The notes beneath the pieces were generated by a model. The model saw only the letters and a program-made list of their open reading frames with translations, did not search any database and was not told where the DNA came from. Positions 2,156 through 60,600 of a stretch of DNA of 64,000 bases are shown one piece after another. The DNA comes from Nitrospinaceae bacterium (lineage in GTDB: Bacteria; Nitrospinota; Nitrospinia; Nitrospinales; Nitrospinaceae): positions 62,001-126,000 of the forward strand of contig JANQEK010000037.1 of the NCBI GenBank assembly GCA_028278405.1. Reading direction: 5' to 3'. Positions within the stretch are counted from its first letter, which is position 1. Each line of letters opens with the position of its first letter. The position numbers were made by a program, and so were the translations under genes.

Positions 2156-2680
2156 TTACTCGAAATCTTCCGGTGACAGTTTGAATTCTGTGTAGCACTC
2201 TTTCAGCAGGCTTTCGGCTGTTTCCACCATATGTAATTCCCCCAGTTCCTCAAAAAGTTTCTTGGCGATCCGCAAGTGGTGGATGGCTTCTTTCCCCTGC
2301 TTGATGGAATAATGCACCGTTGCCAGGTTACTGTGGGCGCGGGCGAAGTTGGGATCGATTTTAACAGCCTCCTGATAATGCTTGATCGAATCTTCGATCA
2401 TATTCAAAAGGTTGCAAATGAACGCCAGGCTGTAATGAGCCATGACGTCGTTCGGCTTTAGTTCCACCGCTTTTTGAAAGCAGGGCAGGGCCTTGGCGTT
2501 TTGCTGGAGTTTGCCGTAGCGGCTTCCCATGTTAAACCAGGCTCGGAAATGCTCCGGGTCCAGGGTCACGGATTGCTCATAGGCGGCGATGGCGCCTTCG
2601 TTGTCTCCGGAGCGGCCCAGCGTGAGTCCTTTCTGGAACCAGCCCTCGGCGCTTTGAGGCGTTGTTGACTCGGTTGTCAT
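2156..2680 (-). CDS. TPR-repeat protein
   Basis: A 174-residue protein made almost entirely of tetratricopeptide repeats, for example GWFQKGLTLGRSGDNEGAIA, then AWFNMGSRYGKLQQNAKALP, AHYSLAFICNLLNMIEDSIK and AHSNLATVHYSIKQGKEAIH. There is no signal peptide or membrane segment, so it is probably cytoplasmic and acts as a protein-protein interaction scaffold. The gene lies 135 bp upstream of the disulfide oxidoreductase on the same strand. No partner can be deduced. Confidence 0.85.
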   Translation of the reverse strand: MTTESTTPQSAEGWFQKGLTLGRSGDNEGAIAAYEQSVTLDPEHFRAWFNMGSRYGKLQQNAKALPCFQKAVELKPNDVMAHYSLAFICNLLNMIEDSIKHYQEAVKIDPNFARAHSNLATVHYSIKQGKEAIHHLRIAKKLFEELGELHMVETAESLLKECYTEFKLSPEDFE

Positions 2681-2904
2681 CGGGTAATCCTTGTGTCAAA
2701 AAGATTCAAAAGATCGAGTTATTGTCGGTTGAGAATGGCCCATATGCTACCCAGTTCAAGGGCCAATTGCAACCTTCAAGGGCCCTTATCTTCCTGTCGG
2801 ACGGGAAAATGCGGAAGACCCCTTGACCCCGGACGAAAAATGATTTTAAATGACATTCTCCAAATAAAAACCGTTAAACCTGTATTTTTGAGGAATTAAA
2901 CACA

Positions 2905-3180
2905 ATGGCAGTTATCGAACCGGGGTCCGAGGAGGAGCAATCGCTTTTAGCCAAGTGGATCCGGCGTGGCCGGGATTTGGTGGTAGGTACTTCCGCGATG
3001 GGAGAATCTTACCTGGATCCCAAAGTCAAACGCGAAGAGGAAGTGCAGAAGCTTTCTGAAGATTACGTGAAATTCGATCACGAGGTGGCGGAACAGCTGC
3101 CTCATTTGAAGGGTCGGTTCCGGTGGGATTTGGAAAAATACTTCCGGGATCATTTTGGTCCTTACCTTCCCATAGAATAA
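2905..3180 (+). CDS. Small protein of unknown function
   Basis: A 91-residue acidic/basic-rich soluble protein that I do not recognise. It starts MAVIEPGSEEE and has an Arg-rich patch (WIRRGRDLV) and a predicted helical C-terminal half. A GAGGAA ribosome-binding site lies about 9 bases before the ATG, which supports this start. It is followed after only 16 bases by the Rieske-like gene at 3197, so the two are probably cotranscribed and may work together. Confidence 0.65.
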   Translation: MAVIEPGSEEEQSLLAKWIRRGRDLVVGTSAMGESYLDPKVKREEEVQKLSEDYVKFDHEVAEQLPHLKGRFRWDLEKYFRDHFGPYLPIE

Positions 3181-3196
3181 TGTTCCCCGAATTGAA

Positions 3197-3520
3197 ATGT
3201 CTGAAGTTCGTCTACTAGATCTGGCTGATGCACCTGAAGAAGGCCGGGGGAAACGGATCGAACTCGATCATCCCTTTACCGAGATCCAATATGCCTTGGG
3301 GGTGTATTTTGTCAAAGGCCGTTATCTGGTGATCACCGACCAGTGCAAAAAGTGCGAATCCAGTCTTGCCGAGGGAAAATTGAATGGTATGTATGCTCTA
3401 TGCGCACGGGAGCAGCATGCGTGGCACATTAAAACCGGTCTGTTCAAATTCGACCGCACTCAGTCCATCCCCACCTATCGTGTAACCGTCAAGGACGAAG
3501 GCCTTTATATTGAGATTTAG
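3197..3520 (+). CDS. Rieske-like ferredoxin-fold protein with altered ligands
   Basis: A 107-residue protein whose layout matches small Rieske ferredoxins (NirD/biphenyl dioxygenase ferredoxin type): a beta-rich N-terminus, then CKKCESSLAEG, then CAREQHAWHIKTG, and a C-terminal IPTYRVTVKDEGLYI strand. In a true Rieske centre the first box is CxH and the second CxxH. Here the histidine of the first box is replaced by Lys (C50-K51-K52) and the second box is CxxxxH (C69, H74). C53 and H77 are additional possible ligands. A classical [2Fe-2S] centre is therefore doubtful; a zinc or no metal is possible. It is probably cotranscribed with the unknown gene 16 bases upstream. Confidence 0.6.
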   Translation: MSEVRLLDLADAPEEGRGKRIELDHPFTEIQYALGVYFVKGRYLVITDQCKKCESSLAEGKLNGMYALCAREQHAWHIKTGLFKFDRTQSIPTYRVTVKDEGLYIEI

Positions 3521-3593
3521 TGAATAGAAGTCGATACCTTTCGTCTCCATAGAGCTGGAGGTATGAAGTCGGCTGTCTTTTGGAAGAGGGAGT

Positions 3594-3869
3594 TTATTCC
3601 CACGCTTCCAATATCAGAGTATTTCCTTCCGCGTCATAAACCTTTTTATCTTTAAGACAGATTTCAACGAATTTGATAGCCAGTTCTTTGGTCTGGCTTC
3701 CACTGTTCCCATACACGTTGAAATCCTGGCCCAGCAGTTCCGGTGATTCGACGCGACAGTAAAAATCCCTCTTCTCTGAAGTGGCAAACGGGCCTTCGAT
3801 CTTCAAGCTGAAGGGACGCCGTTGGCCTTGTTCATCAATAAATGCTGTCAAATAATAAGGGTTGCTCAT
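3594..3869 (-). CDS. Small protein of unknown function
   Basis: A 91-residue soluble protein with no motif that I can name. It alternates short beta-strand-like stretches (YYLTAFIDEQG, RPFSLKIEG, RDFYCRVE, NTLILEAWE) with one helix (ELAIKFVEICLKD), which suggests a small compact alpha/beta fold. It ends 73 bases from the convergent Rieske-like gene and starts next to the long intergenic region to its right. No partner is evident. Confidence 0.6.
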   Translation of the reverse strand: MSNPYYLTAFIDEQGQRRPFSLKIEGPFATSEKRDFYCRVESPELLGQDFNVYGNSGSQTKELAIKFVEICLKDKKVYDAEGNTLILEAWE

Positions 3870-4231
3870 ACTTCCCCCGAAGTTATGAAACGATTAGTTG
3901 GCTTAATTATTACATGAACAGTATTTGTCATGCAATATCCCAGAAAAGTGTACGGGCGGCAAGCTTAAAACCCGCCCAATACCTGTCTATCCTCGCAATA
4001 AATTGTGGATAATTCATTGAAGCGATGTGGAAATATTGTGGCGAAAACGGGCTAAATGTTTGAAGGCAAAATCAATTGAAATTCGGATGATTGGGGGAAG
4101 ATTTAATTCACAGCTGTGGAAAACTTTTTGAATTTTTTAAAAGAGGGTTTTAGAAAAATGCCAAAATAGACTTGGTTGGGGAGGGTATCGAAGGACTGAC
4201 TGTCCGGTATTTGTTTCTGCCGATGACACAA
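3870..4231. other. A+T-rich intergenic region with four same-oriented DnaA-box-like sequences
   Basis: This gap of about 360 bases has no supported gene. It contains TGTGGATAA at 4004-4012, whose reverse complement TTATCCACA is a perfect DnaA box, and three related sequences in the same orientation: TGTGGAAAT at 4026, TGTGGCGAA at 4037 and TGTGGAAAA at 4115. The first three starts are spaced 22 and 11 bases, about two and one helical turns. A T/A-rich stretch follows at about 4120-4160. This could be a replication-origin-like or DnaA-titrating site, but no dnaA, dnaN or rpmH gene is nearby and chance is not excluded. Confidence 0.35.
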
Positions 4232-5671
4232 TTATCGCCGCCAGGCGTGAAACTTCTGGATAAATTTCAGCAGGCCGACCGGCGCATGGTCCTTCTTCCA
4301 AATGCCGGCAGCGAATTTGTTGGCTTCCGCCATCGTGGGATAAATATGGATGGTTCCCAGAATCTTGTTGAGTCCGAGGCCGTGCTTCATAGCCAGCACA
4401 TATTCGGTGATCAAATCCCCGGCGTGATATCCGACAATGGTGACCCCCAGAATCTTGTCCTTGCCGGGCGGGGTCAGCACCTTCACATAGCCCTGGTCCT
4501 CGCTGTCGGCAATGGCCCGGTCGAGGTCGTCGATGCCATACGTCGCCACTTCGTAAGGAACACCCTGCTCCTTCGCTTCCTTTTCATTGAGGCCCACGCG
4601 CGCGACTTCCGGATCAGTGAACGTGGCCCAGGGAATGACGCTGTAATCCACCTTGAATTTCTTGAAGGGACTGAACAGGGCATTGACCGCACAGTACCAG
4701 GCCTGGTGCGCTGCCGTGTGGGTGAACTGATAAGGACCCGCCACGTCGCCGCAGGCATAGATATTTGTGTGTGTGGTGGTTCTCAGGTATTGATCCACTT
4801 CTACCGTACCGCGTGGTCCCAACTTCACGCCGATATCTTCCAGTCCGAACCCTCTGGCGTTGGCGGCGCGGCCGACCGCGACCAAGAGTCGATCGAATTC
4901 CACCTGCTCGGTTTTGCCGTCTTTTTCCACCAGCATGTAGTTCTTTCCATCCTGTACCACCACTTCCTTACACTTGGAGTTGAGGCGCACATCGACGCCA
5001 TCGGCGAGAAATTTCTGGCGCACGATTCGGCTGGCTTCCTCGTCCTCGCGGATCAGGATGTCCGGGAGCATTTCAACCAGAGTCACCTTGCTTCCCAGCC
5101 GCGCGAAAGCCTGCGACAGTTCACTGCCAATCGGCCCGCCGCCCATCACCATCAACTTCTCCGGCAACTTGTTCAGGTTCCAGATGGTGTCGGTCGTGAG
5201 ATAGTCCACCTGATCGAGACCGGGAATCGGAGGAACCGCGGGGCGCGCCCCGGTGGCGATGATGATGTTTTTCGTGGTCAGGACTTTGCCGTTCACCTCC
5301 ACCTCGTGCGGTGAGAGGATCTTCGCCACACCGGTGTAGCAGTCCACGCCGAGCTTGGTATACCGTTCGATGCTGTCGTGGGGAGCCACTTTCCCGATGA
5401 CCTGGTGCACGCGTCCCATCACCTCGGGAAAATTGAAGTCCACCTGCGCCGATTTCAGGCCGAAATCTTCTGCTCGTTTGATATAGGACAAAATCTTTCC
5501 GGTGCGGATGAGCGCTTTGCTGGGCACGCACCCGGTGTTCAGGCAGTCACCGCCCATCTGGTGTTTTTCGATCAGCGCGACTTTCGCTTTGACGACCGAA
5601 CCGATATAAGCCGATACCAGACCCGCCGAGCCCGCACCGATCACGATAATGTTGTAATCCTTCTTCGCCAT
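4232..5671 (-). CDS. FAD-dependent disulfide oxidoreductase, mercuric-reductase-like
   Basis: A 479-residue flavoprotein disulfide reductase. FAD-binding GAGSAGLVSA lies at residues 12-21, the redox pair is C43/C48 in GGDCLNTGCVPSK, the NAD(P)H-binding motif is GGGPIGSELS, and the second FAD contact is YACGDVAG. In the C-terminal box the usual His-Pro-Thr is Tyr-Pro-Thr (HIYPTMAE, Y444), as in a subgroup I associate with TVP38-linked oxidoreductases; this subgroup assignment is from memory. A TVP38-family membrane protein lies at 34462-35172 but is not adjacent. There is no HMA domain or C-terminal Cys pair, so mercury reduction is not supported. It probably reduces a small disulfide or quinone-like substrate. 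Confidence 0.82.
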   Translation of the reverse strand: MAKKDYNIIVIGAGSAGLVSAYIGSVVKAKVALIEKHQMGGDCLNTGCVPSKALIRTGKILSYIKRAEDFGLKSAQVDFNFPEVMGRVHQVIGKVAPHDSIERYTKLGVDCYTGVAKILSPHEVEVNGKVLTTKNIIIATGARPAVPPIPGLDQVDYLTTDTIWNLNKLPEKLMVMGGGPIGSELSQAFARLGSKVTLVEMLPDILIREDEEASRIVRQKFLADGVDVRLNSKCKEVVVQDGKNYMLVEKDGKTEQVEFDRLLVAVGRAANARGFGLEDIGVKLGPRGTVEVDQYLRTTTHTNIYACGDVAGPYQFTHTAAHQAWYCAVNALFSPFKKFKVDYSVIPWATFTDPEVARVGLNEKEAKEQGVPYEVATYGIDDLDRAIADSEDQGYVKVLTPPGKDKILGVTIVGYHAGDLITEYVLAMKHGLGLNKILGTIHIYPTMAEANKFAAGIWKKDHAPVGLLKFIQKFHAWRR

Positions 5672-5767
5672 GGAAATTAACTGAGCTGAGTGAATGGATA
5701 ACCGAACCTTGCCGATTTAGTCGGCATTGTACCCGATTCCTTACAGCCCTGGGAAAGAGAGCGAAAG

Positions 5768-6505
5768 CTAATAATCTCTAATTTCGCCACCGGAGATGCG
5801 GTGCGGGGTTTTGCCGAGGTCCAGCGGGTGGTCGGTGCCGGGGAGGATGGTGCCGTCGGGCGAGTACGGTCCGATCTTGCTCCAGGTGCCGTACTGCACT
5901 TCGCTCACGTATTCGATTTTCACAATCGCCTTGGGATTTTTGTAACCGTATTTGAAAGGCACGATGACCCGCAGGGGAAACCCGTGCTCGTCAGACAGGG
6001 GTGCACCGTCCATTTGAGTGACCAACAGGGTGCGAGGATGGTTCAGGTCTTCCAGTGACAGATGCTCGGCGTAAACATCACCGCAGTGGAAAACTACACC
6101 GGTGGCTTCCGGTTTCGGCGGACAGGATTTCATCAGCTCGGAAAAATGGAAACCGGTCCATTCCGCTTTCGCGGACCAGCATTCGACGCACTTCAGGCGC
6201 GAGGTTTGCGCGATGGTCGGCAGGTTTTTGATTTGTTCCAGCGTGAAGGTTTGCGGGTTTTCGCACAGGCCGCCGATTTCCAGTGTCCAGTCTTCGGCTT
6301 TAATGCGTCGGAGCGGTTTCCAGAAATTGATGTAAAACTGTTTGAATTTGCCGGCGCGGGTTTTGCCGACGAAGTCGGTTCCCGTGAAATAATCCGGCTC
6401 GGCGCGCACGGAACTTGGCGACCACCAGCTTTGCACGAGGGCTGCGCAGAAGGCGATTGCGCGGGTCAGAAACGACCGCCGGTTTATTCTACCGAACGCA
6501 CGCAT
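5768..6505 (-). CDS. Sulfite-oxidase-family molybdopterin oxidoreductase with Tat signal
   Basis: A 245-residue periplasmic molybdenum enzyme with only the oxidoreductase (SUOX) domain, like MsrP/YedY. The N-terminus has a twin-arginine motif, NRRSFLTRA at residues 8-16, and a signal peptide ending near AEPDYF. The molybdenum-ligating cysteine is probably C106 in RLKCVECWSAKAEW, and the family segment ERLSLEDL-like region and EHGFPLRVIVPFKYGYK are present. The start overlaps the end of the upstream SUMF1-fold gene by 22 bases, so the two are translationally linked. The substrate is not known; MsrP reduces methionine sulfoxide, but the partner membrane haem protein MsrQ is not seen here. Confidence 0.85.
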   Translation of the reverse strand: MRAFGRINRRSFLTRAIAFCAALVQSWWSPSSVRAEPDYFTGTDFVGKTRAGKFKQFYINFWKPLRRIKAEDWTLEIGGLCENPQTFTLEQIKNLPTIAQTSRLKCVECWSAKAEWTGFHFSELMKSCPPKPEATGVVFHCGDVYAEHLSLEDLNHPRTLLVTQMDGAPLSDEHGFPLRVIVPFKYGYKNPKAIVKIEYVSEVQYGTWSKIGPYSPDGTILPGTDHPLDLGKTPHRISGGEIRDY

Positions 6506-7140
6506 CGGAACCCCAGGAAGCTGAGCCGTTCCCCCGGGGGGATGGTGGCTTTTTCAAAGGCCTTGCTGTATTCGAAATCAAGGTGCTGGTTCCACAATCC
6601 GCCGCGAATAATTTTCAATGAACCCGCAGCGTCGGCGGTCCATTCCCAGACCGAACCCGCCATGTCGTGAATGCCATAGGCGGAGACATCCTGCTTGTTG
6701 GACGCCACTTTTTGTTTGACGACGCCGGAGTAAAACGGATGCGGACGTTTTTTGGGTTTGTAGTCTCCCCAGGGATAGATGAAGGCGTGTTCTCCCCGTG
6801 CCGCCTTTTCCCATTCCGGTTCGGTGGGTAGACGGCCCCCAACTTTTTCGCAATACTCCTTGGCTTGGTACCAGGTCACTTTCGTTTTCGGGTGTTGGGC
6901 GGCTCCTTTTCGGAATCGGTAATTGGGAAATTGTTCCTGGAATTCTTCGTTGGTGACTTCGCTTTGGTCGATCAGGAAAGTTCGGAGGAACAGACGCCGT
7001 TCGGGTCCATTCGGAGGCCGGTCGCCCTGTCCCATCGTGAACGGTCCCTCCGGAATCATCACCATCGATGAGGCCGAAGCGAAGACGGGTGCGGCGAGCG
7101 ATATAAGAAGGGCCCAACTGAAAATACGGTATCCATTCAT
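6484..7140 (-). CDS. Secreted SUMF1-fold (FGE-sulfatase domain) protein, probably non-catalytic
   Basis: A 218-residue protein with an N-terminal signal peptide (cleavage near FASASS) followed by a formylglycine-generating-enzyme-like domain: MVMIPEGPFTMGQG, then GGRLPTEPEWEKAARG, YPWGDY, GIHDMAGSVWEWTAD, and the end IIRGGLWN...GFRC. The reactive cysteines of true formylglycine-generating enzymes, which sit just after the RGG box, are absent, so it is probably a binding or structural version of the fold. It overlaps the downstream Tat-secreted molybdoenzyme gene by 22 bases, which suggests that the two products act together in the periplasm. Confidence 0.85.
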   Translation of the reverse strand: MNGYRIFSWALLISLAAPVFASASSMVMIPEGPFTMGQGDRPPNGPERRLFLRTFLIDQSEVTNEEFQEQFPNYRFRKGAAQHPKTKVTWYQAKEYCEKVGGRLPTEPEWEKAARGEHAFIYPWGDYKPKKRPHPFYSGVVKQKVASNKQDVSAYGIHDMAGSVWEWTADAAGSLKIIRGGLWNQHLDFEYSKAFEKATIPPGERLSFLGFRCVRSVE

Positions 7141-25975: not shown

Positions 25976-26823
25976 ATTCACGCCTCTTCAAAGAGAGAAT
26001 CCTCTTGGGTTCGCTGTATGGTTTCACCGCTTGCGGTTGCCTGGTCTTGGCCGTAATACTGATTTTAGTTTTCACCAAAGGAGGTCTCGCTATCAGCACC
26101 GCTTTTCTTTTCGAAGAGGCGCGCAATTTCGGATTGGAGGGGGGTATTTTGTATCAGATCGCAGGTACCCTGATCTTAATGACAGGCGCCGCCCTCGTGT
26201 GCCTGCCTGTGGCTTTGGGATCGGTTTTGTTTCAAACGGAATTTTTGCATTCCCCGAAACTCAGGAAAATATTTCGTCTGGTCATCTATGCGCTCAACGC
26301 CGTACCCACCATTATTTTTGGATTGATCGGCTATCTGTTTTTTGGTGTGTTTCTTGAGGCCGGTGTGTCCTGGATGACAGGGGTCCTGGTTCTGGCGGTG
26401 ATGATTCTACCGACCCTGCACGTCAGCATTCACGAAGCAGTGGAATCAATTCCAAAACATTATCGGGAAGCGGGACTGGCGTTGGGATTGTCGCCGGGCC
26501 AACAGATGCGCGCGGTGATTCTGCCGCAAAGCCTGCACGGCATTGTGACGGGAACCCTGTTGGGACTGGCCCGCGCGGCGGGAGAGACGGCGGCGATCAT
26601 GTTTACGGCCACCGCATTTTCCGGTGTGCGCCTGCCGCAGTCGTGGACCGAACCGGTGACCACACTGCAAACGCATATTCTGGTCCTGGCGCAGGAAGCG
26701 GCCAATCCGGTTGCTTTGACCCATGCCTGGGGCGCGGGGCTCGTGTTGTTGACGCTCGTGTTTGTTTTGATCGCAGCGACGCTATGGATTCGATCCGGTT
26801 TGGAAATGGAGGCGCAACGATGA
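25972..26823 (+). CDS. pstA: Phosphate ABC transporter permease
   Basis: A 283-residue inner-membrane permease. It has about six hydrophobic helices, the segment ALNAVPTIIFGLIGYLFFG, an EAA loop YREAGLALGLSPGQQMRAVI and GLARAAGETAAIMFTATAFS. The ATG at 25972 overlaps the pstC stop (ATGA) and gives the expected PstA length; an upstream in-frame extension would be cytosolic and unsupported. It forms the heterodimeric channel with PstC. Confidence 0.93.
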   Translation: MNSRLFKERILLGSLYGFTACGCLVLAVILILVFTKGGLAISTAFLFEEARNFGLEGGILYQIAGTLILMTGAALVCLPVALGSVLFQTEFLHSPKLRKIFRLVIYALNAVPTIIFGLIGYLFFGVFLEAGVSWMTGVLVLAVMILPTLHVSIHEAVESIPKHYREAGLALGLSPGQQMRAVILPQSLHGIVTGTLLGLARAAGETAAIMFTATAFSGVRLPQSWTEPVTTLQTHILVLAQEAANPVALTHAWGAGLVLLTLVFVLIAATLWIRSGLEMEAQR

Positions 26824-27545
26824 ACGAAAGCATACACGCCATTCAACTGGAGCGGGTACGCTTGAGTTATTCCGGCAAGGCGGTGATCGAGACCGCCTCC
26901 TGCGCGGTTCGCAAAAATGCAGTGACGGCTGTAGTGGGTCCGTCGGGAAGCGGCAAGTCCACGTTGCTGAGAACCCTGTGTCGGATGAACGACCGGGTAC
27001 CGGGATTCCAGGTGGAAGGAAAAGTGGTCGTATTGGGACGCGATATTCACGACCCGGCACTCAATGTTTATGAACTCCGCAAGCAGGTGGGCATGGTGTT
27101 CCAGAAACCCTGCGTATTTCCCAAATCGATTGTCGAGAACGTGGTTTTCGGTCTCAAGTTCCATGCCGTCCCGAACGGCAAAAGTTTTCCTGAACGGTCG
27201 GAGCAGGCCCTGCGCGATGCGTTTTTGTGGGACGAGGTGAAGGACCGTCTGCACGATCCGGCGCATACACTGTCGCAGGGCCAGCAGCAACGCCTGGCCA
27301 TGGCGCGCACCCTGGCGGTGGATCCTGAAATCCTGTTGATGGACGAACCGACCTCGGCGCTCGACCCTAAATCTTCGAAGGCCATTGAGGACCTGATCCT
27401 GTCCCTGAAAGATCGGCACACGATCGTGCTGGTGACGCACAACGTGGACCAGGCCGAGCGCGTCGCCGAAGACCTCATCTGCGTCGACGACAAAACCGTC
27501 TGCCACAAACCCTGCCACCCCCTCCCGGGGGAGGGAACTTGCTGA
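26820..27545 (+). CDS. pstB: Phosphate ABC transporter ATP-binding protein
   Basis: A 241-residue ATPase with Walker A GPSGSGKST, the PstB-type Q-loop GMVFQKPCVFPKSI, the ABC signature written LSQGQQQRLAMAR (the usual glycine after Ser is Gln), Walker B ILLMDEPTSALDP and the switch His in VTHN. The ATG at 26820 overlaps the pstA stop. PhoU and the PhoBR pair are not found downstream, where the operon simply ends, so regulation must lie elsewhere. A GGGAGGG-type inverted repeat overlaps the last codons. Confidence 0.92.
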   Translation: MNESIHAIQLERVRLSYSGKAVIETASCAVRKNAVTAVVGPSGSGKSTLLRTLCRMNDRVPGFQVEGKVVVLGRDIHDPALNVYELRKQVGMVFQKPCVFPKSIVENVVFGLKFHAVPNGKSFPERSEQALRDAFLWDEVKDRLHDPAHTLSQGQQQRLAMARTLAVDPEILLMDEPTSALDPKSSKAIEDLILSLKDRHTIVLVTHNVDQAERVAEDLICVDDKTVCHKPCHPLPGEGTC

Positions 27546-27617
27546 AAGAACAACCCTTTTTGAAAACTAATTCCCCGCCTGAATTAACCATACTGGCATA
27601 ACAAGACTCCCTACAAG

Positions 27618-30600
27618 TTAGGAGATCAAAATTTTAAGAGCTTCATAAATTTCACCTTGCATTTCTTGATCGGCAGTTCTTTCTTTAAGCAATTCCCAAA
27701 GGCGAGCATCTCTTTCATTTAGGAGTGCTTGAAAATTATTAAATACCCTCTTGCAATCATCAATTTTGTGTGGAATCCGAACAAGGCCACCCCCACCTGA
27801 CGTAGCTATTAAACTTATGAGGGGAGCTTGATGGGCGTTTTTAGTTTCTATAGTCTTTAATATTTTCTTGCCTTTAACAAACTTGACGGTATGGGTTGCA
27901 AACATATCATCATGAATTTCCGGAATTCCATCTTGTGGAATTTCAAATACGTCAAAGGGTTTGTTAACGTCTATAAAATCCGGATCATATTTTTTAAGCA
28001 ATTCTTCATTCTTTTCAGAAAGTTCTTTGAAAATCTGATTAGCAATTTCTTTTGGGGAAGCCGGGCCACGCCGTTTGGATTTTTGCTTATTTTCTATCGC
28101 TTTTTCTTCTTTTTGACGAGTCCGTTCAAAATAATCTCCTAAGTAATCATATAGCTGATTTATTAATCTTGAGCGTTTCTCATTAGATGAAACACCCAAC
28201 ATTTCTAAAACTGCATCATCCAAACCTCTACGGTCTTCCATATCCAATTCGCAATTATCAGGCAGCTCCTCTAATTCATCCATTCTGCCATCTTTTGTAA
28301 AAGCCATTTCCCTTAAACGGCGTTCTGAAAGGAAAGAAATTGGCTGGCGTTTTTTTAATTTTTTAAAGGCATTAATAACCTTTTTCATATGATTTTTCTT
28401 AGGTTTTCTTGGATCAGGAATCAACATCATATTTGCATCTATTACCATGGTGCTCCAACTTCCTTCATTCCCAACCGGTCTACCAAATTGTAAGGAAGAA
28501 AATAAAGTCCATGTCGTATTTAGAATCCCACCCCAAAGATTTGGATCATCTAAGTCATGCGGAGGATAAATTTCATAAAACCGACAGTTGGCAATCAGAC
28601 GAGAATCATTAGAGGGTGCAATATGTCTGTATTGTCTCTCTTTAGGCCATAATGCTGGTGCTCGATTGTGACCTGTTAAATCATACCATTCTCTATTTTC
28701 AGTAACACGGGAAGCGCAAGTGCTACCCAAATTCCATCCATTCTTTTCTCCCCACCTAATGTATTCAAGGGCAAAGGAGTTTTTTAATTCAGATTTGGTT
28801 TTTGAAATTAACAAAACCAAGCGTTTGCAATCTTGCGGTCTAATATTATAAAATCCAACTTCCATTAAACTATGAGCTTCAGGTTCCAAATATTGGGATT
28901 CGATTATTTTTAATTCTTCATATTTCTCACCACATCTAACAATTTTCAATTTCCCGTCGAAGAAATTTTCTCGTTGAACTCCTATTTCTTCATAAAATTC
29001 TTCATTAGTTTCAAATTTGCCTAAATATTCTTTAGTTACATCTTGAACATAAAAAAATCCATCAAGACCTGTTTTTATCCCATATTTAATTTTTGAGATT
29101 TCTCCTAAAGGGGCCCATCGCTCTTGCGTTTTCTTAAGTAAATCAAACCAAAAATCAGGTGCCCGAAGATAAATCCCCCATTTGCCACCAAAATATTCCT
29201 CAGGTTTACCCATGCGTTGTCCAAGTTTTACTCCCTCATCCCAGAGATCACCTTGACGAACTAAGCGAGCACTATATTTTTCATCAAGGGCATCCTTGTT
29301 TAGCCTCAGGATTTCATCTCTAAAAGTGTTTGCCGCAGTAATTGCTCCGGCTGTCGTTCCATCATTGACTAAAATTTCTTTTAAAGGGTGTCGTAGTTGT
29401 ATAAATCGGGTAGTATTGTTCATTCTGGCATCATCTTTATTCTCACGTTTAAGGATTGTTACGGTAGTTGCTACACGTGCACCTACAAACCAGGGCTCGT
29501 CTAAGCTTTCTAGAATGGCGATGATTCTGAAATTTTCTAAAATCCATTTTTGAAGGTGGAACCCATATTCCACATCAAGCCATTGGCTAGAGGTTAGAAG
29601 GCACAGATATCCATCATCCTTCAAAAAATGGGCTGCATGGGGCCAAAAATAACAATGTAAATCGCTTCTTCCCGAAAAGTCTAAGCCTCTCCATTCCTGT
29701 CCTACTAGGTTTTTGTAATATTCTTTTGTTCCAGTTTTTGGCTGATGTCTTTTCTTTTTAGATTTAGGAATATCTTCCTGTCTTACATAGGGCGGATTAC
29801 CAATAACTGCATCAAGTTGTGGAATTTCAACTTCCCTTTGTTGTATTTTCCCTAGACCTCTTGTTCTTTGTCCCTTTTTTGCATGCTTTGGAAGATACAT
29901 AAAGGGTTTTTGTGAAAGGATATTAAAAAAATCGTTCCGGACTATTTGAGGATAATTTTCTTCATCAATTAAGTCCCGTGTTGCAAGGTTAATTGTGGTT
30001 AAGTGGGCTGCGAAGTGGGAAATATCAACCCCATAAAGGTCTTTAATTATTTGGCTATGGTTGCGAGATGGAGCTATTTCTCTTTTACGGGCATATGCAC
30101 GAACCAAAAATGTGCCGCCGCCGCAGGCTGGATCCATAATCTTTTCTTCCCCAGATAAAATGCAAAAGCTATTTATAAGATCTACTACTTCTGGCCTAGT
30201 ATAAAACTGTCCATACTTGTGGCGCTCCTCTGGAGAAATCAAGCGTTCAAAAATATTTCCTATAATTTCATAATCCAACTTAGAAAAATCGAAAAGGTGA
30301 ATTTGGTTAATTAATTCTCTCCAATGGGAAACTGCGTGATTAGAATAAAAGGGAATTCTATTGCCAATTTCCGTATGATTCTCTCCAAATACTGTTTCAT
30401 AGTCATCGGTTTCAATCTTTGCATCAGCAAAGAATTTTTCAAGATATAAACGAAGATCATCTCCTGATTCTATATGGTCTGGAACAATGATTTTATCCAA
30501 GCGGGTTTTATACCGTTTAAGCAAAGCCTCATAAAAAACAAGTTTATTTACAAGGGCGTAACAGGCAAATTTTGATGCCCTTTCCAGGTTATCTCGGATT

Positions 30601-31268
30601 CCTTCTGGATCGTCTAGGATTGTCCATCCTTGATCTTCTCTCATCCATTTATCTAATTGGGATTGGAATTTTGTCGTTTGGTATTTTTCATCCAGTTGTT
30701 CTATGGTCAAGTAAATCGGCATTTTTAATGAGGATTCTAGAATTTCGATGAATTTCTCGTCTGGAGACTGTAAGCCAAGAGGAAATTTTCCGCGTAGAAT
30801 ATCAGAGAAATCTTCAAGAAAAACTGGAAGCCAGCGTTTGATAGCATGTTCTGTCATTGGTAAATTCATATGGGTTTCTTTTGAAACCGTAGTAATGTTC
30901 CATGACCTATATTTTCTCTTAGGGGTTTTAGTTTTTGGAGGGAAGGTTTCCCAAAGAACACATTCGTTCACGTTCCAAGTGAAAAAATAATCAACTTTGG
31001 CACGAACAGCTTTTTTTCTTGCATCATTAACTAAGTTTTCGTTGTAGGGGCTTCCGCCATTAAGTTTGTAGGGTAGTTTGACTTCCCCGGTGAGAATGAC
31101 TTTTTTATTCTTATCAAGAATAGTTAAGTCGCGTCGCTCATTGGATCCTTTGCCTCTTTGCTCGCACTTAGCCCGGTAGAAAGGTAGACTAGGTTCCTTA
31201 GCAAGAGTCTCATTAATCCAGCTTGCTACGTCCGCAACAAATTCCCATTCAGTAATTGACTCAGGCAC
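27618..31268 (-). CDS. Fused type II restriction-modification enzyme (Eco57I/type IIG-like)
   Basis: A 1216-residue single-chain nuclease-methyltransferase. An N-terminal PD-(D/E)xK-like nuclease has RRDLTIL (D47) and TGEVKLP (E62, K64). The N6-adenine methyltransferase has KYGQFYTRPEVV near 351, motif I IMDPACGGGTFLVRAYARK (DPACGGGTF at 379-387) and catalytic NPPY at 491-494. The remaining 600 residues would hold the target-recognition domain and end in LLNERDARLWELLKERTAD. No separate specificity or helicase gene is nearby. The gene is visibly more A+T-rich than its neighbours, consistent with horizontal transfer. Role: self-contained defence against foreign DNA; recognition sequence unknown. 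Confidence 0.88.
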   Translation of the reverse strand: MPESITEWEFVADVASWINETLAKEPSLPFYRAKCEQRGKGSNERRDLTILDKNKKVILTGEVKLPYKLNGGSPYNENLVNDARKKAVRAKVDYFFTWNVNECVLWETFPPKTKTPKRKYRSWNITTVSKETHMNLPMTEHAIKRWLPVFLEDFSDILRGKFPLGLQSPDEKFIEILESSLKMPIYLTIEQLDEKYQTTKFQSQLDKWMREDQGWTILDDPEGIRDNLERASKFACYALVNKLVFYEALLKRYKTRLDKIIVPDHIESGDDLRLYLEKFFADAKIETDDYETVFGENHTEIGNRIPFYSNHAVSHWRELINQIHLFDFSKLDYEIIGNIFERLISPEERHKYGQFYTRPEVVDLINSFCILSGEEKIMDPACGGGTFLVRAYARKREIAPSRNHSQIIKDLYGVDISHFAAHLTTINLATRDLIDEENYPQIVRNDFFNILSQKPFMYLPKHAKKGQRTRGLGKIQQREVEIPQLDAVIGNPPYVRQEDIPKSKKKRHQPKTGTKEYYKNLVGQEWRGLDFSGRSDLHCYFWPHAAHFLKDDGYLCLLTSSQWLDVEYGFHLQKWILENFRIIAILESLDEPWFVGARVATTVTILKRENKDDARMNNTTRFIQLRHPLKEILVNDGTTAGAITAANTFRDEILRLNKDALDEKYSARLVRQGDLWDEGVKLGQRMGKPEEYFGGKWGIYLRAPDFWFDLLKKTQERWAPLGEISKIKYGIKTGLDGFFYVQDVTKEYLGKFETNEEFYEEIGVQRENFFDGKLKIVRCGEKYEELKIIESQYLEPEAHSLMEVGFYNIRPQDCKRLVLLISKTKSELKNSFALEYIRWGEKNGWNLGSTCASRVTENREWYDLTGHNRAPALWPKERQYRHIAPSNDSRLIANCRFYEIYPPHDLDDPNLWGGILNTTWTLFSSLQFGRPVGNEGSWSTMVIDANMMLIPDPRKPKKNHMKKVINAFKKLKKRQPISFLSERRLREMAFTKDGRMDELEELPDNCELDMEDRRGLDDAVLEMLGVSSNEKRSRLINQLYDYLGDYFERTRQKEEKAIENKQKSKRRGPASPKEIANQIFKELSEKNEELLKKYDPDFIDVNKPFDVFEIPQDGIPEIHDDMFATHTVKFVKGKKILKTIETKNAHQAPLISLIATSGGGGLVRIPHKIDDCKRVFNNFQALLNERDARLWELLKERTADQEMQGEIYEALKILIS

Positions 31269-31519
31269 AATTCACCAACTCTTAGTTTTTTATGGGATTG
31301 ATTTGGTCCATCTTAAAAGAAGTAATTAACTAGTCTCATAGCTTTGAAGGAATAGCGTTTGGCTTTTTCCCGGCGTTTAAGCCTAAATTCAGTCGATTAA
31401 ACACTATGGGGTGGGGCCAGTCAACCGAGGATTCGGATGAGGAATAAACCCCTTTAAAAGGCGGGTGGAAGCGCATATAATTTCGATGATATCCATAGAC
31501 GACGAGTTAAGGTTCAAGG

Positions 31520-33091
31520 ATGAAGAAGCAGAAAGCCCGAAAAAACGAGATTGTATTTTCGACCGGCAACGAGGCGTTATCGACCTTGGGGGAGGAGCTT
31601 CGCCAGAAGTATCCGGAAATGGTGGAGAAGTTCGCGCGCCTGCAGGGGTCGGACCCGGTGGTCCGGCGGCTGGTGGATACGGTGCACGACCTGATGCCTT
31701 ACGACTGGCAGGATTCCGAGCAATTTTACCAGGGAGCCATGTATTGTGTGCGAGGCCATTATCTGGGCGCGCTCGGCGAGTTTTCCGAGATTTTGGAAAT
31801 GGAGCCGGAAGCGTACCCGGTGTATCACCTGCTCGGGTACGTCTGCGGCAGTATGGGAAAATACAAGATGGAAGTGGATTACTACCGTAAGGCGATCAAG
31901 ATCAAGCCCGACTATCCGCAGGTGTATTACGATTTAGCGCTCGCTTACTGGATGATGGGCAAGGAGAGCAAGGCCTACGCCGCCATGAAGCAGGGGGTGG
32001 CGATCAATCAGGATTTTGCAGTGGCCGATCACTGGTTGACTTTCGCTTCGGATCACCTCGGACGCTATCAGGATCCGGACGGCCTGGGGGAAAAGGAAGA
32101 GGGCGAAAAGGTACGATGCCTCACTCAGGCATATTATATTCTGGGAATGGCTTATCTCGATTATGGATTGAATGCCAATGCGCGTTCGGCCTTTAAGAAC
32201 GCCGTCAAACTGAAAGAGGATTTTGCCGACGCGCACTATCAATTAGGAGAGCTGCATCTCAAAAAACTACGCAATCTCAAGCGGGCCCGTGGTTATCTGG
32301 AGACTGCCGAATCGTTGTACACGCGGGCGAACGACCTGGCGCGGGCGGGGTTGGCCCATCAACTGCATGTGCCTGTGGAAGAAATCTCTGACAAAGAACA
32401 GGCCGCTGACGACTGGTTGAAAGAAGGTCTGCGGTTGCAACAATTGGGCTTGTACCAGAGCGCCGTCGACGCCTATAAAAAAGCCATTGCGTTTCATCCG
32501 GATGATGTCGACGCGTATTACAATATGGGTATCGCATACGGCAGTCTGGAGGATTTGGGACAGCCTAAAATAGACCAGGCCATCGGTGCGCTGAAACATG
32601 CGGTGCGGTTGAAACCTGATTTTGTTCATGCCCATATTGCGTTGGGAGCTTCGTATATCCGGCGCGGCGATTTCCAGGAAGCGGTGGATTTGCTGGAAGA
32701 TTCAGCGCATCTGGCTCCCAATGATTACAATGTTTTTTATTATCTGGGAACAGCCATGCGCATGATGGGGAAAGTTCAGGAATCGCTTTCCGTTCTCGAA
32801 AAGGCGGTTTCACTTGCGCCGGATTCGGTGCATGCCCGATTCTCTCTGGGTTTGGCTTATTATGATTCCAAGCGGCTGGAGCTGGCCCGGGATGAATTTC
32901 TGGAAACCGTTCGCTTGCGCCCGGATTTCGCCGATGCGCATTTCCTGCTGGGCAGCTTGTATCACTCAGCACTGGAGGACACGGAGCGATCCCTGTTCCA
33001 TTTGAGAAAAGCGGAGAAATTGTTTTCGAAGCTCAAGGACTACCCGAAAGTATCAAGGGTTCGAGAATTAATGTCGACGCAACCGGTTTGA
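31520..33091 (+). CDS. Large TPR-repeat protein
   Basis: A 523-residue cytoplasmic protein built from about ten tetratricopeptide repeats, such as YPVYHLLGYVCGSMGKYKME, AYYILGMAYLDYGLNANARS, AYYNMGIAYGSLEDLGQPKI and ARFSLGLAYYDSKRLELARD. The N-terminal 90 residues carry no TPR and are charged. There is no signal peptide. Its stop overlaps the start of the next gene by four bases (ATGA), so the two proteins are probably made together. A scaffold function is likely; the partner may be the secreted product of the next gene, but they would sit in different compartments. Confidence 0.88.
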   Translation: MKKQKARKNEIVFSTGNEALSTLGEELRQKYPEMVEKFARLQGSDPVVRRLVDTVHDLMPYDWQDSEQFYQGAMYCVRGHYLGALGEFSEILEMEPEAYPVYHLLGYVCGSMGKYKMEVDYYRKAIKIKPDYPQVYYDLALAYWMMGKESKAYAAMKQGVAINQDFAVADHWLTFASDHLGRYQDPDGLGEKEEGEKVRCLTQAYYILGMAYLDYGLNANARSAFKNAVKLKEDFADAHYQLGELHLKKLRNLKRARGYLETAESLYTRANDLARAGLAHQLHVPVEEISDKEQAADDWLKEGLRLQQLGLYQSAVDAYKKAIAFHPDDVDAYYNMGIAYGSLEDLGQPKIDQAIGALKHAVRLKPDFVHAHIALGASYIRRGDFQEAVDLLEDSAHLAPNDYNVFYYLGTAMRMMGKVQESLSVLEKAVSLAPDSVHARFSLGLAYYDSKRLELARDEFLETVRLRPDFADAHFLLGSLYHSALEDTERSLFHLRKAEKLFSKLKDYPKVSRVRELMSTQPV

Positions 33092-57356: not shown

Positions 57357-57647
57357 TCTCCACTCCAAAAATATTTTTCCCGAACAAAAAAATTCAAAAA
57401 TAGGGCATTCCTAAAACAATGCTTTTGAAAACAGATGATTAAAGCCAGTCGTTGGAAAAAGTCTGACAGGAGATATATACCCTATATAGGCTGAAAAGGG
57501 TTTTTCGAAGTTTTATTTGTTGACATTAATGACCAAATAAAATTATGCTCCCCGAAAACGAATAATCCGTTTTAGGAAAATACGCGGATTTATATAGGGT
57601 TTTCCTAATCGGCTCAATGAAACTTCATAGGTGTGGGGAGGGGAGCA
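57357..57647. other. Intergenic region before the giant secreted protein
   Basis: About 290 A+T-rich bases without a gene. It contains the palindrome CCTATATAGG at 57481-57490 and TTGACA at 57520-57525, a good -35; no clear -10 with correct spacing follows (candidates AATTAT at 57541 and TTATGC at 57543). Confidence 0.4.
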
Positions 57648-60600
57648 GTGCGACGATTCCGTTTGCTGTGGAAGTTTAAGATCTGGGCGATGTTTCTTGG
57701 GCTCGTTCTGCTGATGCCTTCCTTCGCCCAGTCTGCAGTGATTCCGGTATCTGGAACCATTGCCACCGACTTCACCTTCAGCGAGGGTGAAACGTATTCG
57801 GTCACCGGTCCGGTGACGATGACGGGAGTCACCACATTCGAGGCCGGGGCCACGATCAAGTTCGACTCCACTGGATCGCTCAACGTTTCCGATCCGGTTT
57901 TCAAGCCCACCTTTTCAAAACAAATCATTTTTACATCCAAAGACGACAACAGCGTCGGTGAAGTGATCACTGGCAGTACGGGTTCGCCGGTAAGCTATCC
58001 CAGCGCACTGACCCTGGCGAAGGGTAGTGTGCGTTACGTGCAGATTCGTTTCGCGGACGAGGGAATCGTGTTCGCCGGCAATGAGACTTTGACGGTGCGC
58101 GACAGTGAGTTCTTTGCGGTGGGCACACCGGTCAATGCATCTTCCAGTGCAGGACCGGCCACGATGAACCTGAACAACCTGTTGGTCGCCAACGGTACCA
58201 ATGGCCCGGTACTGACAGACGATGGCACCAACGCCCTCACAGTTTCCGCCAACAATGTCACTCTGACGAACCTGACGGGCGATGGTTTCAACAATACCGC
58301 AGCTGCGGCCGGTTCATCTTTGAATGTCACAGACAGCTTGTTTGTCGATATCCAAGGCGCATCCGTGTTTGCAGGAGCGGGCATCACAACTGAAAACCAC
58401 AATGCATTTTTTCAAACACCGGACACCGGAAGCGGCGCAGACAATGTAGAGTTGACAGCGGATCCGATACTCACCGATTTCTTTCTCGATCAGAACTCCG
58501 CAGTCATTAATGCGGGCAGCCGAACGGCGACCGATGCCGGGATGTACCATTACAACACCAATGAGGATGGAACGATCGAAGGTCCGACGACCGTTGACAT
58601 CGGTTACCATGCGTCGCCTGCGATCACTCAGTTTTCGGTGCTGGCTCTTAAGAGCATCTGGATGAAGAGCGGCTCGATGGTATCCGGAGACATTGCCGTC
58701 AATCAGGCATCCAGCGGGCCTTTTCTGGATTCTGGAGTCGCGTTGGTCGTCGGTCACGATATGGTCCTGCCACCTGCGATCAACCTGCGCGCCGACAGCA
58801 TCAAGGTGAAAACCGGAGCCGTGATCAACGGCAAGGTGTACCACAATTCATTGGAGAACAACGCGACGATCAACGGCGCTATTAGCACTCCGCTGGCGTT
58901 TCCCGCTCTGGATGAATTACCTTTCTTTCGTGCAGCCACGCTGGGCACGGTCAGCGATATTAATGTTGCTGCCGGGACAACGCATGTCCTGGCGCCGGGG
59001 GATTACGGAGTCATCACGGTTAACAACAATGCGACCCTGCAGTTCACCGGCGGCTTGTACCAGATTCAAAAGATAGATGCCAAGAAAACCACCTCGCTGT
59101 TGTTCGATGCGCCGAGCGAAGTGCGGATCAAAGAGAATTTGAAAACCAAGCAATCGTCGACCCTGGGTCCTTCCGCCGGAGCTACTCTTGATGCCGGGGA
59201 CATAAAGTTCTATGTGGAAGGTGCGGATGTGGGAAACACGCTGGCAATCGAGTTCGGTCACACGCATACAGTGAAGGGTCATTTTTATGCGCCCAATGGA
59301 ACTCTATCGCTCAAGCGGCAATCGACTTTCGCCGGGATCTTTCTGGCGAAGGATGTGATGATTGGTCACGACTCACAGGTCGAACTGGATGAAGGTACCG
59401 GGCAACCGATCGTAGCAACACCCTCCATCACTCCCAATGGAGGCACCTTCAACGGTTCCGTGGATGTGAGTTTGTCGACGATCACCTCCGGTGCGACCAT
59501 CCGGTTCACTACCGATGGTTCTATTCCGACCGCGACCTCGACACCGTTTACGGGTCCGATTACGTTGACACCGAATGCAGCGACACAAACCATCAAAGCC
59601 ATTGCCTTTCGGGATGGTTTTGCCGAAAGCGGTATTGTTAGCGCCGACTTTGTCGTCAACGAACCACCGGTTGCAGCCTTCACTGCGACTCCAACGACTG
59701 GGGAAGTGCCCTTAACGGTCAGCTTCGACGCGTCGGCCTCCACCGATCCTGGTAACAACATCACTTCTTACGCGTGGGACTTCGGTGATGGAACAACGGG
59801 TACGGGAGTAACCACCGATCATGAATACACAGCAGGTGGTACGGTTACGGTGACTCTGACGGTGACCAATGGTTTGGGCGGAACGGATCAAGCCACAACA
59901 AGTATCGTAATCAACGCCCCGCCCGTCGCGGTACTCAGCCCGAAAAATACAGAGAATAGAGTTCCTTTAACTGTATCGTTCGATGGTTCGGCATCCACCG
60001 ATGTCAATAATGATATTGTTTCTTACACTTGGGATTTTGGTGATGGCACCACTGCTACTGGTATTACAGCAACACATGAATATACAACTGCAGGCTCTTT
60101 TATAGCTGTTCTTACGGTAACAGATGCTGTTGGGCTGTCCGGCACGAGTATTGGGACTATTAGCGTAATACCAGCAAACACAGCACCTACTGCTGAATTT
60201 ACGCGAACTCCATCCGATCCGGCGCCCGCGCCTTTGACCGCATCATTCGATGCCTCGGGTTCTTCAGATGATGAAAACAACATTGCCACCTACGAGTGGG
60301 ATTTTGGAGACGGTTCCACCGGCACGGGAATTACTACTACACATGAATACACTACGGTCGGAGCATTTACGGTTGTTCTGACCGTTACCGATGATCTTGG
60401 CCTATCCGATCAATTTACCAGTGTCATTGAGACGACGGGTAATCGGCCACCCAATATTTCGATCAGGTCGCCCTCTGCCAATACTATTGTCATTGAGTCA
60501 CGACCGGAAATCACACTGACTTATAACGATGATACGGCCATTGACCCTGCCAGCTTCACATTGCTTCTTGACGGTGCGCCCTTGGAGACTACATGTAACG

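What the first reader, a model, noticed from the sequence alone, without database searches (positions are those of the whole stretch)
27618..31268. Single-gene restriction-modification island
A 3.65 kb A+T-rich gene encoding nuclease, methyltransferase and presumably specificity in one chain lies alone between pstB and a TPR gene. Its base composition differs from both flanks, with no mobility gene, so it may have arrived by homologous flank exchange. Type IIG enzymes self-modify, so a cognate motif should be methylated across the genome.
Basis: partly seen in the sequence, partly recalled or inferred. Interest (0 to 1): 0.5.

Follow-up and report, generated by a model that had tools for sequence, protein, structure and literature searches.

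The report
Foreign one-gene Type IIG restriction enzyme
A bacterium has picked up, from an unknown source, a single gene predicted to make a DNA-cutting and DNA-marking defence enzyme in one chain; such enzymes are known, but members of this wide family appear to exchange part of their target-reading domain.

Summary
27618-31268 (-) is one intact 1216-aa gene, alone between pstB and a TPR gene, the most deviant of 140 long ORFs in 343 kb for G+C and codon use. Seven other genomes of the genus show no match (several incomplete); the nearest has a 184-bp pstB-TPR gap. The foreign stretch is 27546 to 31363-31439. By anatomy it is a Type IIG enzyme: PD-(D/E)XK nuclease, helical connector, gamma-class adenine methylase, target-recognition domain (TRD). 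Models of both ends match the BpuSI crystal structure best by VIA-align (Z 12.6 and 18.5); about 160 C-terminal residues lie beyond that match. Thirty-four relatives, in eight phyla by record title among 26 treed, have no recurrent partner gene. About 100-120 TRD residues conflict with the scaffold tree; two Contendobacter copies sharing their upstream flank are 92% identical in DNA outside that tract and 65% inside. Activity, recognition site and mode of arrival are inferred or open. A new member of a known kind.

The parts
27546..31439 (.). foreign stretch: window DNA with no strict counterpart at the empty pstB-TPR site of the nearest relative G005; the right junction may lie anywhere from about 31363 to 31440
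   Evidence: strict local alignments to L077 (G005): left match ends at the pstB stop (27545), right match begins at 31440; a permissive, gappy alignment reaches left to about 31363
27618..31268 (-). Type IIG restriction-modification gene, 1216 aa, GTG start
30774..31268 (-). PD-(D/E)XK nuclease domain, residues 1-165
   Evidence: motif E36, D47, E62-x-K64; D47 and E62 invariant in 26 of 26, K64 in 25 of 26 (R in L018); model best match BpuSI, then HsdR
31128..31130 (-). predicted catalytic D47
   Evidence: invariant in 26 of 26 full-length proteins
31077..31085 (-). predicted catalytic E62-x-K64
30279..30773 (-). helical connector, residues 166-330
   Evidence: all-helical in the model; BpuSI alignment spans model residues 2-326
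29409..30278 (-). gamma-class N6-adenine methylase domain, residues 331-620
   Evidence: Pfam Eco57I and N6_Mtase
30108..30134 (-). SAM-binding motif I DPACGGGTF, residues 379-387
   Evidence: D379, P380, G383, G385, F387 invariant in 26 of 26
29787..29798 (-). catalytic motif IV NPPY, residues 491-494
   Evidence: invariant in 26 of 26
28104..29408 (-). target-recognition domain with following helices, residues 621-1055
   Evidence: model residues 51-441 match BpuSI 558-875, Z 18.5, rmsd 3.6, 270 aligned
28389..28748 (-). TRD tract that appears to be exchanged, residues about 841-960
   Evidence: pairwise identity uncoupled from the scaffold; tree conflict; divergent tract in L023/L025
27621..28103 (-). 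conserved C-terminal extension, residues about 1056-1216, beyond the BpuSI match
   Evidence: BpuSI alignment ends at model residue 441 = residue 1055; no Pfam family over cut-off; diverges in step with the scaffold
26814..27545 (+). pstB (flank)
   Evidence: ABC transporter, Pfam; orthologues adjoin the TPR gene in G001, G002, G005, G006, G007, G012, G013
31520..33091 (+). TPR protein gene (flank); a promoter-like TTTAAA/TATAAT pair at 31453-31481 lies on the native side of the junction
   Evidence: the pair is, whose total of sites is not above shuffles, but similar letters precede the TPR gene in siblings

Best explanation
A horizontally acquired, self-contained Type IIG restriction-modification enzyme with a BpuSI-like body. 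One chain binds an asymmetric site through its TRD; the gamma-class methylase domain puts a methyl group on an adenine of the site on host DNA; on unmethylated incoming DNA the N-terminal PD-(D/E)XK domain cuts at a fixed distance, probably after transient pairing of two enzyme molecules. With no companion methylase beside it, it probably protects the host by one-strand methylation, as MmeI-like enzymes do. The family travels as a single gene, and its specificity probably changes by exchange of a tract of about 100-120 residues in the TRD. Shown by computation: domains, motifs, foreign composition, lack of a match in siblings, solo context, TRD conflict. Inferred: enzymatic activity, one-strand protection, defence role, and that the tract sets specificity. 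Open: recognition site, how the gene arrived, and what the C-terminal extension does.
For: Pfam and PADLOC matches; nuclease and methylase residues invariant across 26 proteins, K64 in 25; the spacing D47-x14-E62-x-K64 equals the D60-X14-E75-A-K77 reported for the Type IIG-like nuclease HVO_A0006 (PMC4389544, passages). Models with mean pLDDT 87.7 and 90.8; BpuSI is the best match of the N-terminal model by Foldseek and VIA-align and of the C-terminal one by VIA-align. No neighbour family in more than 2 of 34 loci. No match in 7 of 7 other genus genomes, occupied against empty site, foreign composition. TRD tract: correlation of pairwise identity with the scaffold (residues 1-620) is 0.10-0.13 for windows within 861-960, against 0.75-0.80 for windows starting at 1061-1141, which are independent of the scaffold. 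Sisters L017 and L035 (full tree 100/100; scaffold 100) are rejected as sisters by the tract (p-AU 1.9e-6), and the window's tract groups with L017, L018, L020, L042 (100/98), a set the scaffold rejects.
Against: No activity data. The nuclease domain has no over-threshold family match by sequence; its PADLOC match alone is weak (0.0051 for the window, 10 of 25 members match); L018 has R for K64. By Foldseek the C-terminal model ranks CamA and M.BseCI far above BpuSI, which is 39th. Four of 34 relatives are broken (L039, L041, L045, L050), so some copies are decaying or misassembled. The clades tested were chosen after seeing the sliding identities, so the p-values are exploratory, and the tract trees rest on 114 columns. 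The genome holds one other adenine methylase over cut-off (C25, 519 aa) and one 5-cytosine methylase (C17, 412 aa) that could act as companions in trans; it is 95% complete. The defining biochemical traits of Type IIG cannot be tested here.
Confidence: 0.87

Rival explanations
1. A methylase-only enzyme (PglX-like or orphan) whose N-terminal domain no longer cuts; its role is epigenetic marking.
For: PglX/BrxX (1205-1225 aa) is matched in the methylase part by sequence (5e-8) and in the TRD by fold (Z 10-11); L018 has R at the catalytic lysine; the gene is single.
Against: D47 and E62 kept in 26 of 26 and K64 in 25 of 26 proteins; nuclease fold matches BpuSI and HsdR; PglX models are far below their cut-offs (27.9 against 500 bits); no BREX gene recognised among the neighbours.
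Confidence: 0.06
2. A remnant of a multi-gene defence system (BREX, MADS, DISARM or similar) that lost its partners.
For: Methylase domain also resembles MAD2 and PglX; 3 of 39 other window ORFs match the PADLOC mad2 profile and one mad3, not followed up.
Against: No neighbour family recurs in more than 2 of 34 loci (11 such pairs: 2 HigBA pairs of L018/L039, 5 of L023/L025, one of L026/L041, 3 not identified). MAD2 score 44.4 against cut-off 720. ORFs next to the gene are pst transport and TPR genes.
Confidence: 0.03
3. An old gene of the genus, lost in the siblings, not a newcomer.
For: Presence and absence alone cannot tell gain from loss; several sibling genomes are 70-84% complete.
Against: No match in 7 of 7 genus genomes; of 4 family genomes only a weak partial methylase match in one; in G001, G002, G005 and G007 the pstB-TPR gap is seen and is 127-336 bp; lowest G+C and most deviant codon use of 140 ORFs.
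Confidence: 0.04
4. An assembly chimera: a foreign contig joined into this genome.
For: The genome is a 47-contig assembly; the gene is compositionally foreign; reads are not available.
Against: Both flanks run on inside one contig and match G005 up to both junctions, so two false joins would be needed.
Confidence: 0.04

Closest known systems
RM.BpuSI (Type IIG, crystal structure 3s1s)
   Same: Order nuclease, helical connector, gamma-class methylase, TRD; best VIA-align match for both modelled ends.
   Different: About 160 C-terminal residues beyond the match; no companion methylase genes beside it (the BpuSI system has two, PMC3817140, passages); identity in the structural alignments only 14% and 9%.
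MmeI (Type IIL)
   Same: Single-chain R-M-S without companion methylase; MmeI_Mtase Pfam over cut-off; TRD fold Z 12.6.
   Different: Structural match of the TRD weaker than BpuSI; extra C-terminal part.
Haloarchaeal and haloviral Type IIG-like enzymes (Halobaculum roseum WP_222923984, HRTV-11 gp78)
   Same: Top hits in the plasmid and phage collections, 27.8% and 24.1% identity.
   Different: 980 and 1032 aa; the matches end at window residues 1008 and 970, so they seem to lack the C-terminal extension; HRTV-11 gp78 lies next to an integrase gene.
PADLOC REase_MTase_IIG PDLC03606
   Same: Best profile match, best stretch residues 39-664.
   Different: Profile of 935 positions; most of the TRD and the extension lie outside the best stretch.
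TRD exchange and domain movement in Type I and Type IIG S genes of Helicobacter pylori (PMC3077401, passages)
   Same: Recognition modules replaced while the rest stays.
   Different: There a separate S subunit with flanking repeats; here a tract inside a single-chain enzyme; flanking repeats were not looked for in the relatives.

Membership tests
Type IIG restriction-modification enzyme (as described in PMC3874165, passages seen) | gamma-class amino-methylase domain with motif I and NPP(Y/F/W) | tested here: met
   Pfam; DPACGGGTF and NPPY, key positions invariant in 26 of 26
Type IIG restriction-modification enzyme (as described in PMC3874165, passages seen) | N-terminal DNA-cleavage domain, PD-(D/E)XK, in the same chain | tested here: met
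   motif and predicted fold; by prediction, not by activity
Type IIG restriction-modification enzyme (as described in PMC3874165, passages seen) | C-terminal specificity domain or S subunit | tested here: met
   predicted TRD fold matches BpuSI, M.BseCI, CamA, MmeI
Type IIG restriction-modification enzyme (as described in PMC3874165, passages seen) | cleavage at a fixed distance from the site; cleavage affected by SAM (the latter from PMC3817140) | not testable with these tools
   needs purified enzyme
BpuSI-type system | companion methylase genes M1 and M2 beside the RM gene | tested here: not met
   neighbours are pstB and a TPR gene; no recurrent partner in 34 loci. Elsewhere in the genome: one other adenine methylase over cut-off and one 5-cytosine methylase, whose targets are unknown
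MmeI-like one-strand modification | host protection by methylation of one strand by the enzyme alone | not testable with these tools
   needs methylome data; absence of an adjacent companion is only compatible
BREX PglX | scores over the NCBIfam cut-off | tested here: not met
   27.9 bits against 500 (BREX-1), 21.9 against 400 (BREX-2)

The most novel reading that the evidence does not exclude
A widespread solo Type IIG family in which specificity changes by replacing a tract of about 100 residues inside the single chain, at one chromosomal place, while a conserved C-terminal extension beyond the BpuSI body acts as a built-in control of cutting that lets the enzyme do without companion methylases.
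Probability: 0.12. Interest if true: 0.55.

Novelty: new member of a known kind. Interest (0 to 1): 0.33.

Why it matters
Single-chain Type IIG enzymes are hard to re-target (general knowledge, recalled). Natural pairs that differ most in one short TRD tract (L023/L025) or place it against the tree (L017/L035, L018/L029, L027/L031/L042) would give ready-made comparisons for mapping which residues read which bases, and for making chimeras. The family also shows restriction genes sitting singly between ordinary genes, here without an integrase on the contig.

Tried and rejected
No relative of the family was found in viral contigs, by protein or by alignment. Sequence profiles of the N- and C-terminal parts found no credible solved-structure relative (best E 0.088 and 0.21). 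No recognition site could be inferred. The palindrome CCCTCCCGGGGGAGGG at the end of pstB was looked at as a possible entry sequence: in G000 the 17-base form occurs once exactly and once with one mismatch, so nothing supports it. A PADLOC scan of 39 window ORFs (57633-63809 left out) named 16 families, such as mad2, mad3, RtcR, AriA and HEC-01A, in 1 to 3 ORFs each; these were not traced to single ORFs, so a second defence gene in the window is neither shown nor excluded. The NCBIfam scan shows only 25 of 522 families. The N-terminal Z of 12.6 covers a part-helical model, for which the tool warns that Z under about 13 can mean a common arrangement; the Foldseek match and the motif are why I trust it. 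Literature searches listed no paper that I recognised as describing this family; REBASE and most subscription papers are not held.
Full report
Observation. The gene at 27618-31268 (-) is one intact ORF of 1216 aa with a GTG start; a protein search of its own genome found this one copy. G000 is an unnamed assembly of 3,155,620 bases in 47 contigs, 95.2% complete; the window is contig C20:62001-126000. Pfam Eco57I, N6_Mtase and MmeI_Mtase are over their cut-offs, and the best PADLOC model is a Type IIG enzyme.

Foreignness. Among 140 mechanically chosen ORFs of 300 aa or more in 343,460 bases (the window and 16 stretches of G000) it has the lowest G+C (0.375; mean 0.505, sd 0.038), the lowest GC3 (0.294; mean 0.578, sd 0.073) and the largest codon-use distance; the gene itself is one of the 140. 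Its G+C is also below that of the matched stretch in all 34 relatives (0.453-0.655), so the donor lineage is probably not among those found; the highest identity in the tree is 61% (L018). In 21 of 29 relatives with at least 2 kb of flank the gene is poorer in G+C than its flanks, by more than 3 points in 14; L026 and L028 go the other way by 11.8 and 10.6 points.

Presence and absence. Of 7 other genomes of the genus none has a match; of 4 other family genomes one has a weak partial methylase match (several are incomplete). Of 77 genomes of the phylum two match at 1e-60: G000 and a 35%-identical one of another family with a stop inside.

The slot. pstB and the TPR gene are neighbours in G005 (gap 184 bp), G001 (336), G002 (296), G007 (127), G006 (1443), G012 (161) and G013 (658; its TPR match starts at residue 18), and 3977 bp apart here (gaps measured between aligned ends). 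They are not adjacent in G014 (same contig, about 16 kb apart); G015 and G003 gave no pstB match and G004 no TPR match; G008-G011 were not examined for this. Against G005 the window matches up to the pstB stop at 27545 and strictly again from 31440, leaving 100 bases of G005 without strict counterpart; the left intergenic piece aligns no better than shuffles, while a permissive alignment of the right piece (score 93, largest of 200 shuffles 50) runs gappily to about 31363, so the right junction is uncertain by some 80 bases. A promoter-like pair at 31453-31481 lies on the native side; the number of such sites in the region is not above shuffles (11 against 10.1), but similar letters stand before the TPR gene of siblings. 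In G006 the slot holds a different insertion with two short ORFs (the longer has only a sub-threshold DUF7453 match). In G003 a HigB-like toxin ORF (Pfam PF05015, 4.9e-15) lies between the contig end and the TPR gene, so there the slot is inferred from one flank. The interval therefore varies among siblings. No bounding repeats were seen, no tRNA lies near, and none of 11 phage-integrase matches of the genome is on C20; transposases were not searched.

Anatomy. Residues 1-165 form a predicted PD-(D/E)XK fold with E36, D47 and E62-x-K64; D47 and E62 are invariant in 26 of 26 full-length proteins, K64 in 25 (R in L018). The spacing is that reported for HVO_A0006, a Type IIG-like nuclease of Haloferax (PMC4389544, passages). 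The model of residues 1-345 (pLDDT 87.7) has BpuSI as its only Foldseek match under 0.001 and as best VIA-align match (Z 12.6, rmsd 3.4, 155 aligned), followed by EcoR124I HsdR (Z 8.8). The model of residues 615-1216 (pLDDT 90.8) ranks CamA and M.BseCI first and BpuSI 39th by Foldseek and BpuSI first by VIA-align (Z 18.5, rmsd 3.6, 270 aligned, model 51-441 to BpuSI 558-875; next M.BseCI 15.7). Residues after about 1055 are beyond the BpuSI match, have no Pfam family over cut-off and seem absent from the haloarchaeal and haloviral top hits, whose matches end at residues 1008 and 970. A Mesorhizobium plasmid (NZ_AP023258) matches as far as residue 1198, so the extension is not confined to the 34 relatives.

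Family. The genome collection gave 34 loci: 25 full-length and intact, 5 cut by contig ends, 4 broken (L039, L041, L045, L050). The tree of 26 rows names eight phyla by record title, 4 rows having none; phyla are partly mixed, but MAG binning and missing rows forbid counting transfers. No neighbour family recurs in more than 2 of the 34 loci (blastp 1e-6 over 317 ORFs of 80 aa or more; many flanks are short). Toxin-antitoxin pairs lie directly upstream in L018 (HigBA) and in L023 and L025 (Phd/PIN; Pfam run for L023 only), and within 2 kb in L039 (HigBA); phage-type integrase ORFs lie within 3 kb in L022, L036 and L040 (ten ORFs picked by eye, the rest not scanned). In the plasmid and phage collections only distant matches occur: 9 of 72,556 and 14 of 50,697 records, all under 60% identity.

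TRD conflict. Across 22 enzymes, pairwise identity in 60-residue windows was held against the scaffold (residues 1-620). Windows inside the scaffold correlate at 0.51-0.88 but share residues with it; independent windows give 0.51-0.76 when starting at 601-661, fall to 0.10-0.13 within 861-960, and return to 0.75-0.80 when starting at 1061-1141. In the windows 841-900 and 881-940 the window protein is 65-82% identical to L017, L018, L020 and L042 but 31-53% to L035, L027 and L029, whose scaffolds are about equally distant. A tree of residues 836-950 (114 columns) joins the window with those four (100/98) and rejects L017+L035, L027+L031+L042 and L018+L029, all of which the scaffold tree supports at 100; the scaffold rejects the five-member tract group. 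These groups were picked after seeing the data. L023 and L025, two Contendobacter genomes, share DNA from about 4.2 kb upstream to the end of the enzyme gene and not beyond (five shared upstream ORFs). Their enzyme genes are 92.4% identical over 3423 aligned bases outside L023 codons 894-993 and 64.6% over 297 inside. The tract is not the only low spot: of 57 60-column windows outside it, 54 are at 82-100% and three lower (77, 75 and 37%, the last over an alignment gap). The simplest reading is replacement of a recognition tract; that it changes specificity is inferred.

Mechanism. As Type IIG enzymes are described (PMC3874165, PMC3817140, passages), such a chain marks adenine and cuts unmarked DNA at a fixed distance, probably by transient dimerisation, with SAM aiding cleavage. 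BpuSI and Eco57I have companion methylases; MmeI does not. Here no companion lies beside the gene. Elsewhere the genome shows one other adenine methylase over cut-off (C25, 519 aa, probably HsdM), one sub-threshold Eco57I match (C32), no PF01555 match and one 5-cytosine methylase (C17, 412 aa); their targets are unknown.

Verdict. The new parts are the extent of the insertion, the variable slot, the BpuSI-like body with an extension, and the TRD tract. TRD exchange as such is known (PMC3077401, passages), so this is a new member of a known kind.

Noticed in passing
window 27518-27535: Palindrome CCCTCCCGGGGGAGGG at the 3' end of pstB, inside its reading frame; a like one stands there in G005 and G006, part of it in G001, none in G002 or G007; few copies in four genomes searched.
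   Followed up: partly
L084 (G003) 116-532: HigB-like toxin ORF next to the TPR gene of a sibling, apparently in the same slot as the restriction gene.
   Followed up: partly
L018 7306-7923; L023 and L025 7259-7940; L039 1848-2506: Toxin-antitoxin pairs (HigBA, Phd/PIN) next to or near relatives of the gene.
   Followed up: partly
L080 (G006) 873-2008, + strand of L080: Different insertion in the pstB-TPR slot with two short repeat-rich ORFs, perhaps one broken gene.
   Followed up: no
L111 (HRTV-11) 2266-6544: Haloviral Type IIG gene lies beside an integrase gene.
   Followed up: no
L023 codons about 681-713 against L025: A second, shorter low-identity spot with a length difference between otherwise similar enzyme genes.
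   Followed up: no
L023 11676 / L025 11694: DNA shared by the two Contendobacter loci stops at the end of the enzyme gene; what lies downstream differs.
   Followed up: no
G000:C21:870-3294: Three phage-integrase matches in a row on another contig of the genome.
   Followed up: no
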